This document shows, one piece after another, positions 19,396 to 21,770 of a stretch of 64,000 bases of DNA. Both the position numbers and the translations under genes were made by a program. The notes beneath the pieces were generated by a model, which saw only the letters and a program-made list of their open reading frames with translations, ran no database searches and was not told where the DNA came from. The first letter of the stretch is position 1; the number at the start of each line of letters is the position of its first letter. Origin of the DNA: Sphingobacterium sp. UT-1RO-CII-1. GTDB taxonomy: Bacteria > Bacteroidota > Bacteroidia > Sphingobacteriales > Sphingobacteriaceae. Where the stretch lies: the NCBI RefSeq assembly GCF_026711005.1, contig NZ_JAPPVJ010000006.1:124001-188000 (forward strand), written 5' to 3'.

Positions 19396-19466
19396 AAGGA
19401 TGCATTTTGGCGATTTTCTGCTTGCTAAAAGGCAGAATATACAAAATATTAAGGAGAATATGAATT

Positions 19467-20033
19467 TTACCGCTCGCAGCTATTCAAAACCGAACGAAAG
19501 GCCGCAAAAGACTGCGCTTCCCGATCTTTATCGGACAGTAAGATTTGACCAGAAGTGACGCCCCAGTCAATAGCTAGATCAGCATCTAAAGGATGAATGC
19601 CATTTTCAGACTCTCTGTGATAGAAATTGTCGCATTTGTAGGAAAAAATAGCCGTTTCCGATAAGACGGAAAAGCCGTGTAAGAAACCACGGGGAATAAA
19701 AAGTTGCTTTCTATTTTCAGCAGAAAGCTCTACAGCGACAAATTGCCCAAATGTAGACGAATTTTTCCGCACATCGACAGCAACATCAAGCACACAGCCC
19801 TCGAGCACACGAACTAACTTAGCCTGCCCATGCTCTCCGGTTTGCATATGTAGACCCCGGACAACCCCGTAGCTTGACTTAGACTGGTTGTCTTGAACAA
19901 AAGTAGGGGAAAAACCCAAAACCGACGCCAAGCTATGCGAATTATAACTCTCGAAAAAGTAGCCTCGATCATCTTCAAAAACGTTCGGTTCTAAAATAAA
20001 ACAACCTTTTAATAGAGTTTCTGTAGCTTTCAT
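19467..20033 (-). CDS. rfbC: dTDP-4-dehydrorhamnose 3,5-epimerase
   Basis: A 188-residue cupin enzyme that epimerises C3 and C5 of dTDP-4-keto-6-deoxyglucose. It shows GCFILEPNVFEDDRGYFFESYN, NQSKSSYGVVRGLHMQTGEHGQAKLVRV with catalytic His62, FIPRGFLHGFSVLSETAIFSYKC with Tyr132, and DADLAIDW. Length and motifs are standard RmlC. The 17 bases upstream of its ATG are followed directly by the 9-bp repeat array, so the array lies in its 5' leader if it is transcribed from rfbB. Confidence 0.96.
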   Translation of the reverse strand: MKATETLLKGCFILEPNVFEDDRGYFFESYNSHSLASVLGFSPTFVQDNQSKSSYGVVRGLHMQTGEHGQAKLVRVLEGCVLDVAVDVRKNSSTFGQFVAVELSAENRKQLFIPRGFLHGFSVLSETAIFSYKCDNFYHRESENGIHPLDADLAIDWGVTSGQILLSDKDREAQSFAAFRSVLNSCER

Positions 20034-20050
20034 TGTTTGTATTTTATGTA

Positions 20051-20230
20051 GTTGATAGGGTGTATAGATTTGATAAAGTTAAGATGGTTGATAGAGTTGA
20101 TAAAGTGTATAAAGTTAAGAAGGTTGATAAAGTTGAAAGAGTTGATAGGGTGTATATAATTGAGAAGGTTGATAGAGTTGATAAAGTGGAGAAAGTTGAG
20201 AAAGTTCATAGGGTGGATAGAGTTGAGAAG
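20051..20230 (+). repeat. 9-bp tandem repeat array L, about 20 units
   Basis: Twenty consecutive 9-mers start at 20051 with no phase slip; the consensus is GTTGATARR. Variants include GTGTATAAA, GTTAAGAAG, GTTGAGAAG and GTGGATAGA. Positions 2 and 7 are nearly fixed (T and A). On the plus strand the units read as Val-Asp-Lys/Arg triplets, giving a 67-codon open frame with no sign of being a real protein. On the minus strand (transcribed direction of the operon) the array is a pyrimidine-rich YYTATCAAC series downstream of the S23 gene and upstream of rfbC. Confidence 0.95.
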
Positions 20231-20237
20231 TTTTGAA

Positions 20238-20585
20238 TTAGTTTTTTAGTGACTTTATCAAGTTAGAAAGCATACTTTTGATATAATTCATCTTAGTTTG
20301 AAATGTAGATAAATCTGCTATAAAGCCTAAACGAAAAGCTAATTCCAATTGTGTTTCTAGCTCGCTAGCTGAACCTAAAGCGATATAAAGAAAACGGATA
20401 AACTCCGCCTGACTTTGTCGCCCAGCCCCTTCTGCTATGTTTGATGGAATTGAAACCGCAGCACGCTTAATTTGACTAGTCAAACCGTACACCTCTTCTT
20501 TAGGAAAAAACCTTACCGTTTCGTAAACAGAAACCACCAAGTCCATAGACTCCTGCCAAACCTTCAAATCCTTATGACTAGCCAT
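20238..20585 (-). CDS. four-helix-bundle protein, S23/23S rRNA intervening-sequence protein family
   Basis: A 115-residue protein that is almost entirely helical. Family marks are KDLKVWQESMDLVVSVYE at the N-terminus, LTSQIKRAAVSIPSNIAEGAGR in the middle (the diagnostic AAVSIPSNIAEG), and FLYIALGSASELETQLELA. The family (TIGR02436-like) includes ORFs inside 23S rRNA intervening sequences and is related to the Avd accessory protein of diversity-generating retroelements, which bind nucleic acid as pentamers. No 23S rRNA, reverse transcriptase or variable-repeat target is nearby. The gene lies between rfbB and rfbC with 7 and 10 bp to the flanking repeat arrays. Function here is unknown. Confidence 0.9.
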   Translation of the reverse strand: MASHKDLKVWQESMDLVVSVYETVRFFPKEEVYGLTSQIKRAAVSIPSNIAEGAGRQSQAEFIRFLYIALGSASELETQLELAFRLGFIADLSTFQTKMNYIKSMLSNLIKSLKN

Positions 20586-20595
20586 CTCTTACTTT

Positions 20596-20714
20596 ATAAC
20601 CCTATTAACCCTCTAAACCTTATTAACCCTCTAAACCTTATTAACCTTATTAACCCTCTAAACCTTATAAACCCTATTAACCTTATTAACCCTCTAAACC
20701 CTACTAAATTAACC
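20596..20714 (-). repeat. 9-bp tandem repeat array R, 12 units plus degenerate end
   Basis: The tetranucleotide AACC occurs at 20598, 20607 and every 9 bp up to 20697, twelve times without a slip. Plus-strand units alternate between TTAACCCTM, TAAACCTTA and TTAACCTTA; read on the minus strand they are GGTTTAGAG and GGTTAATAA. A degenerate unit follows at 20706, and an off-phase TTAACCCTA overlaps the rfbB stop codon (20715-20717). The array lies 10 bp upstream of the S23 start codon, so it forms the leader of that gene in an rfbB-S23-rfbC transcript. Confidence 0.95.
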
Positions 20715-21770
20715 CTATTTATACTGCTGCTCGTAGTAAGACTGATAGGCACCTGAAGTGACATTGGCCAACCAATCGGGATTCGCAAGATACCAATCAA
20801 TAGTATGTGAAAGCCCTTCTTCGAAAGTGACCGTAGGTGTATAACCTAACTCTCTGTTAATCTTGGTGGCATCAATGGCGTAGCGCAAATCATGACCGGG
20901 ACGATCTTTAACAAAGGTGATCAGCTGCGCTGAAGTGCCTGCGCGGCGACCTAGCTTTTCATCCATCTGCCGGCATAACTCTTTAACCAGATCGATGTTT
21001 TGCCACTCGTTGAAGCCACCGACATTATAGGACTCACCATGACGGCCACCATGAAACACCAAATCGATAGCACGTGCATGATCGACAACGTAAAGCCAGT
21101 CGCGCGTAAACTTTCCATCGCCGTAGATAGGTAAAGGCTTATTGTTTAATATATTATGGATACAAAGCGGAATGAGCTTTTCTGGAAAGTGGTTTGGCCC
21201 ATAATTATTAGAGCAATTGGTAATAACGATAGGTAGACCATAGGTATCATGATATGCCCGAACAAAATGATCAGAAGCTGCTTTAGAAGCCGAATAAGGA
21301 GAGTGTGGGTCGTAACTTGTTTCTTCGGTAAACAGACCTACATCACCTAAAGTGCCATAGACTTCATCCGTAGAAACATGATGAAAAAGTTTCCCCGCAT
21401 AGTTACCTGCCCAGACTTCACGAACAGCATTAAGCAAATTTACTGTCCCTAATACATTAGTCGTGACAAAAGAAGTAGGGTCTGAAATAGAGCGATCAAC
21501 ATGCGACTCTGCCGCTAAATGTATGACCGCATCAGGCTTTAACGCCCTAAATAGAGAAAGAACCCCATCGAAGTCTCTAATATCTTGCTTAACAAAAGTG
21601 TAATTCTCTTTATCTTCTATATCCCGAAGATTTTCTAGATTGCCTGCATACGTTAACACATCGAGGTTAACTATCCGGTAATGAGAATACTTAACAACAA
21701 ATTCGCGAACAACATGCGAGCCTATAAAACCCGCTCCACCAGTAATTACAATTGTTTTTTGCATGATCAA
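20715..21770 (-). CDS. rfbB: dTDP-glucose 4,6-dehydratase
   Basis: A 351-residue NAD-dependent dehydratase making dTDP-4-keto-6-deoxyglucose. It shows GGAGFIGSHVV at 11-21, HLAAESHVDRSI, STDEVYG with Asp135/Glu136 at 133-139, YSASKAASDH with Tyr159/Lys163, and NNYGPNHFPEKLIP. Length is normal, and the ending YYEQQYK looks native rather than truncated although the repeat array abuts the stop. Met3 (21764) is an alternative start. Confidence 0.97.
   Translation of the reverse strand: MIMQKTIVITGGAGFIGSHVVREFVVKYSHYRIVNLDVLTYAGNLENLRDIEDKENYTFVKQDIRDFDGVLSLFRALKPDAVIHLAAESHVDRSISDPTSFVTTNVLGTVNLLNAVREVWAGNYAGKLFHHVSTDEVYGTLGDVGLFTEETSYDPHSPYSASKAASDHFVRAYHDTYGLPIVITNCSNNYGPNHFPEKLIPLCIHNILNNKPLPIYGDGKFTRDWLYVVDHARAIDLVFHGGRHGESYNVGGFNEWQNIDLVKELCRQMDEKLGRRAGTSAQLITFVKDRPGHDLRYAIDATKINRELGYTPTVTFEEGLSHTIDWYLANPDWLANVTSGAYQSYYEQQYK

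What the first reader, a model, noticed from the sequence alone, without database searches (positions are those of the whole stretch)
20051..20714. S23 four-helix-bundle gene bracketed by inverted 9-bp tandem-repeat arrays: a candidate undescribed element
Seen: about 20 GTTGATARR units (20051-20230) and 12 in-register GGTTWANAR units (AACC every 9 bp from 20598 to 20697) surround one 115-residue S23-family ORF. The arrays lie in inverted orientation and share the backbone GTTNANARR. The gaps to the ORF are only 7 and 10 bp. The unit exactly fills the space between intact rfbB and rfbC. Known: S23 proteins are encoded in 23S rRNA intervening sequences, and a related family (Avd) serves retroelements. 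Inference: the arrays act as terminal inverted repeats or as binding/processing sites for the encoded protein, making a minimal mobile or selfish element that spreads into intergenic gaps. I know of no description of such an element, but cannot check.
Basis: partly seen in the sequence, partly recalled or inferred. Interest (0 to 1): 0.85.

Follow-up and report, generated by a model that had tools for sequence, protein, structure and literature searches.

The report
S23 gene cassettes with repeat arms
A small gene of unknown function sits between two mirror-image blocks of a 9-letter DNA repeat; the same arrangement, usually with a 7-letter repeat whose spelling goes with the version of the gene, surrounds most relatives of this gene in several bacterial phyla, so gene and repeats look like one exchangeable cassette and may explain short DNA repeats that have puzzled people for years.

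Summary
One S23 gene (PF05635) lies between inverted 9-bp arrays in the rmlB-rmlC gap; it is the genome's only S23 gene, and the arrays are private to this site. The pattern is general: 91% of 108 S23 genes in the genus have a tandem array (mostly 7 bp, some 8 or 9) on at least one side, against 7% of neighbouring sequence. The two arms match in inverted orientation. S23 genes from other Bacteroidota, Cyanobacteria and some other phyla look the same. The unit goes with the S23 lineage, not the genome. At an orthologous fadB-fadA gap, three S23 classes with three units replace each other between species whose flanking genes are up to 99-100% identical. Empty gaps, scars and arrays without the gene also occur. 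Dispersed arrays of two tested units are frequent only in genomes with S23 (48 of 65 against 0 of 29), though phylogenetic correction weakens this. Best reading: an exchangeable gene-plus-repeat cassette whose Avd-fold protein recognises its own repeats, comparable to REP-RAYT but without a transposase. Binding, enzyme and mobility are inferred. Heptamer arrays (TAACTGA, GGGAATC) were described before; the two papers checked do not mention S23.

The parts
20238..20585 (-). S23 / 23S_rRNA_IVP (TIGR02436, four helix bundle) gene, 115 aa, Avd-like fold
   Evidence: PF05635 135.5 bits; TIGR02436 138.5 bits; AlphaFold model of an aligned homologue (L015) pLDDT 94, matches 2gsc TM 0.93 and Avd 4dwl TM 0.82
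20597..20707 (-). upstream arm (relative to S23): 9-bp array GGTTWANAR read on the - strand, 11 strict units
   Evidence: TRF period 9 score 117, period 27 score 131; unit count
20050..20230 (+). downstream arm (relative to S23): 9-bp array GTTGATARR read on the + strand, i.e. inverted with respect to the upstream arm
   Evidence: TRF score 161; unit count; inverted match score 46 against 8 direct
19467..20033 (-). rmlC (rfbC), intact downstream neighbour, co-directional with S23
   Evidence: ORF; tblastn to relatives
20715..21764 (-). rmlB (rfbB), intact upstream neighbour, co-directional with S23
   Evidence: ORF; empty rmlB-rmlC gap of 10-16 bp in most related species compared

Best explanation
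The locus is one copy of a widespread gene-plus-repeat cassette. A small S23 gene, which codes for an Avd-fold four-helix protein, is bracketed by convergent arrays of a 7-9 bp repeat that belongs to that S23 lineage. The cassette lies in sense orientation inside host operons, so host transcription probably expresses it. The protein recognises its repeat unit, on DNA more likely than as an RNA helix. Through that recognition and a still unknown partner enzyme or host recombination, the cassette is inserted, lost and swapped at intergenic gaps, and arrays also spread without the gene. In organisation it works like a REP-RAYT system or a semi-selfish passenger, without a transposase. SHOWN: anatomy; generality; unit goes with S23 lineage; the two arms match each other; cassette replacement, empty gaps and scars; dispersed arrays concentrated in S23-positive genomes. 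INFERRED: physical binding, trans-mobilisation, partner enzyme, expression by read-through.
For: Genus: array score of 10 or more in 81% of upstream and 70% of downstream 250-bp flanks (either 91%) against 6.7% of neighbouring sequence; own-arm inverted match median 16 against 9 for mismatched arms, p 5e-34. Beyond the genus: inverted match of 14 or more in 57% (other Bacteroidota), 80% (genomes chosen for TAACTGA arrays) and 79% (cyanobacterial phylum) of S23 loci against 3-8% for mismatched arms. Unit goes with lineage: period needs 4 changes on the S23 tree against 14 or more (mean 17) in shuffles; cross-locus arm match 14-15 for close S23 in different genomes, 8.5-9 for distant S23 in one genome. 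Arms at one orthologous site match their own partner (634 against 447; none of 20,000 permutations reached it). Cassette swaps: S23 46% identical with flanks 90-92% identical, G002/G039 upstream flank 97-100% identical up to the gene end, class uncoupled from the flank tree (21 changes, shuffles mean 23). Empty gaps, scars and gene-less arrays. Arrays (2 units, 3 or more hits): 48/65 S23+ against 0/29 S23- genomes. 23 of 24 genomes picked for TAACTGA arrays without regard to S23 carry S23; base rate in the cyanobacterial phylum 74/146. Sense orientation to both neighbours in 105/108, against about 43% expected from 87% same-strand gene pairs.
Against: The window's own genome has no dispersed 9-bp arrays. 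Dispersed units do not always match the resident S23: G028 and G058, whose single S23 belongs to the AGAT-type class, hold 200 and 370 AGTANTN hits. The independent-pairs test gives about 4:0 at the threshold of 3 hits, not significant, and at 1 hit about 3:1. Gene and arms could share history through simple linkage, without recognition. No target duplication was found, no transposition between strains could be tested, and the fold has no known catalytic relative. Cassette swaps could be old alleles exchanged by homologous recombination. In 17% of loci a direct match of 14 or more also exists.
Confidence: 0.5

Rival explanations
1. Host regulon: S23 is a domesticated nucleic-acid-binding regulator encoded within operons; arrays around it and elsewhere are its binding sites controlling stability or translation of polycistronic mRNA. 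No mobility is needed.
For: Purifying selection on S23 at the fad site (median dN/dS 0.15); long persistence at the fadB-fadA site; dispersed arrays sit in operon gaps, often beside stop or start codons; earlier proposal of translational regulation for TAACTGA arrays (PMC4679880).
Against: Patchy presence (65/94 genomes), scars and decayed copies, class switching uncoupled from flank phylogeny, unit differing between paralogues in one genome.
Confidence: 0.2
2. IVS-like RNA passenger: the inverted arms form a long hairpin in the operon transcript with S23 in the loop, cut out by RNase III as in 23S rRNA intervening sequences, so that the cassette is tolerated between genes.
For: The window transcript folds as one giant hairpin, -185 against -143.6 kcal/mol for shuffles, z -6.2; sense orientation in 105/108; same protein family and complementary ends as the Coxiella IVS (PMC4990558).
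Against: Arm mismatches are not biased to G.U pairs (81 wobble-compatible against 123 A.C transitions), so the helix does not look optimised as RNA; none of the genus sites examined lies in rRNA.
Confidence: 0.15
3. Long-kept alleles: S23 classes A, B and C are old allelic cassettes at a fixed site, exchanged by homologous recombination between flanking genes and perhaps kept by balancing selection; there is no own mobility.
For: Same site, three classes, sharp boundaries, flank identity often highest next to the element; class uncoupled from flank tree.
Against: The same 9-bp lineage sits in two different gaps (between rmlB and rmlC in G000 and G016, upstream of rmlB in G003); truly empty sites and gene-less arrays exist; dispersed arrays.
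Confidence: 0.1
4. The arrays are ordinary microsatellites that happen to lie next to S23.
For: Short tandem repeats can expand by slippage; gene-less arrays also occur.
Against: 91% against 6.7% in neighbouring sequence; inverted matching of arms; unit goes with S23 lineage; fixed inner end NAGAY in 21 of 23 dispersed arrays against 0.8% per-position background for AGAY.
Confidence: 0.03

Closest known systems
23S rRNA intervening sequences with S23 ORF (e.g. Coxiella, Leptospira; PMC4990558)
   Same: S23-family ORF bracketed by complementary ends; described as a selfish element
   Different: Here in protein-coding operons, not rRNA; ends are tandem arrays of a lineage-specific 7-9 bp unit; arrays also dispersed without the gene in relatives
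REP / REPIN-RAYT systems (PMC3116915, abstract only)
   Same: One gene of low copy number, matching short repeats around it and dispersed in intergenic gaps
   Different: RAYT is a Y1 transposase (own knowledge); S23 has no catalytic domain and the repeats are tandem arrays, not single palindromes
Dispersed heptamer arrays: TAACTGA in Beggiatoaceae, Cyanobacteria and Bacteroidetes (PMC4679880); GGGAATC convergent pairs in Xanthomonas and GGGGATT in Nostoc (PMC4692102); cyanobacterial STRR (own knowledge)
   Same: 7-bp tandem arrays in intergenic regions, in Xanthomonas often convergent pairs
   Different: No S23 mention found in the two papers searched; here an S23 gene is found inside such pairs, and the window unit is 9 bp
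Avd of diversity-generating retroelements
   Same: Same fold (Foldseek TM 0.82 to 4dwl, 0.81 to 8ub7)
   Different: Fails the Avd equivalog model (18.6 against cut-off 80 bits); no reverse transcriptase directly next to it

Membership tests
S23 / 23S_rRNA_IVP protein family | profile match over the curated cut-off | tested here: met
   PF05635 135.5 against 33.8 bits; TIGR02436 138.5 against 24 bits
S23 / 23S_rRNA_IVP protein family | four-helix fold as in 2gsc | tested here: met
   model of aligned homologue L015 (53% identical to the window protein), TM 0.93 to 2gsc
S23 / 23S_rRNA_IVP protein family | homopentameric ring | not tested
   known for the Xanthomonas protein (PMC4990558); no oligomer model made
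23S rRNA intervening sequence (IVS) | located in an rRNA gene | tested here: not met
   rmlB-rmlC gap; no Rfam match in 19400-21000
23S rRNA intervening sequence (IVS) | complementary ends around the ORF | tested here: met
   inverted score 46; hairpin z -6.2
23S rRNA intervening sequence (IVS) | excision by RNase III | not testable with these tools
   needs RNA work
Insertion sequence / transposon | encodes a transposase or recombinase | tested here: not met
   between rmlB and rmlC the only ORF not made of the repeats is S23, whose only Pfam match is PF05635
Insertion sequence / transposon | target-site duplication | tested here: inconclusive
   no clear duplication; empty sites too diverged at rml and fad. 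The ~3-bp duplication of G630 belongs to an IS-like carrier
REP-RAYT | Y1 (HUH) transposase gene | tested here: not met
   the gene matches PF05635 only
REP-RAYT | dispersed cognate repeats in the same genome | tested here: not met
   none for the 9-bp unit in the own genome; frequent in S23-positive relatives for 7-bp units
Diversity-generating retroelement Avd | Avd equivalog profile | tested here: not met
   NF033474 18.6 against 80 bits
Diversity-generating retroelement Avd | reverse transcriptase with template and variable repeats | not tested
   no genome-wide RT search made; direct neighbours are rmlB and rmlC

The most novel reading that the evidence does not exclude
S23 proteins are sequence-specific readers, and with a polymerase or reverse-transcriptase partner (as Avd has) writers, of short tandem repeats. 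S23 cassettes would then be a class of gene-repeat element spanning several phyla that makes the heptamer arrays known as STRR, TAACTGA and GGGAATC repeats, adding units directionally outward from a fixed inner end.
Probability: 0.12. Interest if true: 0.95.

Novelty: categorically new. Interest (0 to 1): 0.85.

Why it matters
The S23 family is common (298 of 395 Bacteroidota genomes) and has no known function. Intergenic heptamer arrays in Bacteroidota, Cyanobacteria, Beggiatoaceae and Xanthomonas have been described without a responsible gene. This links the two (Xanthomonas and Beggiatoaceae untested or negative here) and makes both testable: one small protein, one short DNA, one binding assay. 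If the recognition is real, the many S23 lineages with different units (7, 8 or 9 bp) form a natural set of protein-repeat pairs from which a recognition code could be read. It would also place the rRNA IVS with S23 as a special case of a wider intergenic element.

Tried and rejected
Early reading that S23 occurs in both orientations at one site: wrong, the loci had not been oriented; after orientation 105 of 108 are in sense with both neighbours. RNA helix as the selected feature: the wobble test goes the other way. Gene-less arrays as copies of the resident S23 arms: fails in G028 and G058. G630 multicopy element as proof of own mobility: rejected, it is an S23 module inside an IS/MITE-like carrier with its own ends. 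Duplicate S23 pair in G042 (L086/L087) as recent transposition: the whole 4.3 kb is identical, so it is a segment duplication or assembly effect. Rfam: nothing. Plasmid collection: S23 mainly on cyanobacterial plasmids, no strain series useful for empty sites. Literature: no paper found linking S23 to tandem arrays among open-access texts, but subscription journals are not covered. The one Parabeggiatoa genome searched (G492) has TAACTGA arrays but no PF05635 match: an unexplained exception. Xanthomonas (XCC0516 with GGGAATC arrays) could not be tested with the collections left. Charge gives no hint (window protein pI 8.0).

Full report
OBSERVATION. The window has an S23-family gene at 20238-20585(-) between two 9-bp arrays (20050-20230 and 20597-20707) that lie in inverted orientation, inside the rmlB-rmlC gap. 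PF05635 scores 135.5 bits. The arrays are by far the strongest tandem repeats of the window (TRF 161 and 131; next best 49) and the 9-bp pattern is private to this site in the 4.5-Mb genome (22 of 23 hits here, reversed-pattern control 0). The genome has one PF05635 gene.

GENERALITY IN THE GENUS. 65 of 94 genomes of the genus carry PF05635, with up to 13 copies. I analysed 108 distinct S23 loci with sufficient flanks. In 250-bp flanks a periodic array (score 10 or more) is present upstream in 81%, downstream in 70%, on either side in 91%, against 6.7% of neighbouring sequence and 4.8% of shuffles; period 7 (or 14) dominates, then 8 and 9. The left arm matches the reverse complement of its own right arm (median 16) far better than right arms of other loci (9; p 5e-34) or the direct strand (10). 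The unit differs greatly between loci: AGTATTT, AGTATTG, AGATTTG, AACGAGT, AAACGGG, AGGCTAT, AGTTATCG and so on.

BEYOND THE GENUS. PF05635 is in 298 of 395 Bacteroidota genomes; 30 of those S23 loci show the same arms (inverted match of 14 or more in 57% against 2.5% for mismatched arms). I then started from the repeats: TAACTGAx4, the heptamer described in Beggiatoaceae, Cyanobacteria and Bacteroidetes (PMC4679880), found 111 stretches in several phyla. Three contain S23, each with the array within 16-206 bp and in the same polarity, TCAGTTA-S23-TAACTGA. Of 24 genomes chosen from this list without regard to S23, 23 carry S23, against 74 of 146 for the cyanobacterial phylum as a whole and 0 of 14 control genomes. 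The exception is a Parabeggiatoa genome. Their S23 genes, including some from Chloroflexi, Verrucomicrobia and Gracilibacter, mostly have matching arms (80% against 8%). Not all do: the Pyrinomonadaceae locus L341 shows none.

THE UNIT GOES WITH THE S23 LINEAGE. On a tree of 108 S23 proteins the period needs 4 changes against 14 or more (mean 17) in shuffles. The window protein falls in a supported group with the S23 of G003 and G016, both also with 9-bp arms. Arms of close S23 proteins in different genomes match each other (14-15, nearly the own-locus value 16), while arms of distant S23 proteins in one genome do not (8.5-9). So the unit belongs to the S23 lineage and not to the genome's mutational habits. 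Linkage alone would also give this correlation, so it shows one inherited unit and only suggests recognition.

ONE SITE, THREE CASSETTES. In about 50 species S23 sits between fadB and thiolase. The site is empty (9-10 bp) in seven species, holds 30-33 bp scars that look like the end of a right arm in about a dozen, and a decayed S23 in one. S23 here falls into three supported main classes with three units (AGTATTG, AGATTTG, AGTATTT), and the two arms match their own partner. The class is unrelated to the phylogeny of the flanking genes (21 changes in 48 genomes, shuffles mean 23). Class A and C species have flanks as alike as within a class (90-92%) but S23 only 46% identical. In G002 and G039 the upstream flank is 97-100% identical and the first 900 bp downstream 98-100% identical, right up to the stop and start codons, with the whole cassette different. 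The cassette is therefore a discrete exchangeable unit; whether by own mobility or by homologous recombination is open. At the window's site, most related species compared have an empty 10-16 bp rmlB-rmlC gap; five hold arrays without the gene, inverted in the cases I read; in G003 the 9-bp lineage lies upstream of rmlB instead.

DISPERSED ARRAYS. Patterns (AGTANTN)x3 and (AGATNTG)x3 give 3 or more hits in 48 of 65 S23-positive and 0 of 29 S23-negative genomes. Independent-pairs analysis leaves about 4:0, so part of this is shared ancestry. Twenty dispersed arrays read in three genomes are intergenic, some as inverted pairs without S23 and with unrelated loops; 21 of 23 end on their inner side in NAGAY, so they are discrete structures. 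The dispersed unit does not always match the resident S23 (G028, G058).

HOW IT MAY WORK. S23 lies in sense with both neighbours in 105 of 108 loci; with 87% of other neighbouring pairs on one strand, about 43% is expected. This suggests expression by host read-through. S23 at the fad site is under purifying selection (dN/dS 0.15). A model of an aligned homologue has the fold of 2gsc and of the retroelement accessory protein Avd. The transcript of the window cassette would form a giant hairpin (z -6.2), but mismatches between arms are not biased to G.U pairs, so recognition of the sequence, more likely as DNA, fits better than selection for an RNA helix. My preferred reading is that S23 recognises its own array and that recognition, with an unknown partner, underlies insertion, exchange and array spread. 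Rivals are a host regulon, an IVS-like RNA passenger, and old alleles exchanged by recombination.

KNOWN AND NEW. S23 ORFs in rRNA intervening sequences (PMC4990558), dispersed heptamer arrays (PMC4679880, PMC4692102) and REP-RAYT gene-repeat systems (PMC3116915) are known. I found no text that joins S23 to the arrays, within open-access papers only. It fails defining features of IVS (not in rRNA), transposons (no transposase), RAYT (no Y1 enzyme) and Avd (profile). I rate the system as a new kind, with the caution that its mechanism is inferred and that subscription literature was not searched.

Noticed in passing
G630 (cyanobacterial-phylum genome), L362 and L391-L399, L401, L402: About a dozen dispersed copies (mostly 96-99% identical) of a ~560-800 bp element with ends TAACTGAYGTTACGCA and, in several copies, ~3-bp target duplications, carrying an S23 gene with AGGTTTC heptamer arms; only L362 has an uninterrupted S23. 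An S23 module appears to have been captured by an IS/MITE-like carrier.
   Followed up: partly
L159-L163, rmlB-rmlC gap of G052, G004, G005, G024, G055: GTAAC/GTGAC-type arrays without S23 fill the same gap that holds S23 in the window; G004, G005 and G055 have an S23 gene with related arms one gap further on.
   Followed up: partly
L040, L043, L066, L077, L099: Two S23 genes of the same or different lineages lie within about 1.3-1.8 kb of each other, most with arms of their own.
   Followed up: no
L174 (G012:C1:548039-550065): A tandem repeat of about 45 bp (ATATTGGAACGGGAAACGCTATTTGTGATTGATGGAAGTGGAA) lies next to a heptamer array.
   Followed up: no
L438 (NZ_CP081930, Riemerella anatipestifer 'plasmid'): The record holds lepA and suf genes with S23 between an iron-sulphur assembly gene and sufB; it looks like a piece of chromosome filed as a plasmid.
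   Followed up: no
[quoted passage not shown]
   Followed up: no
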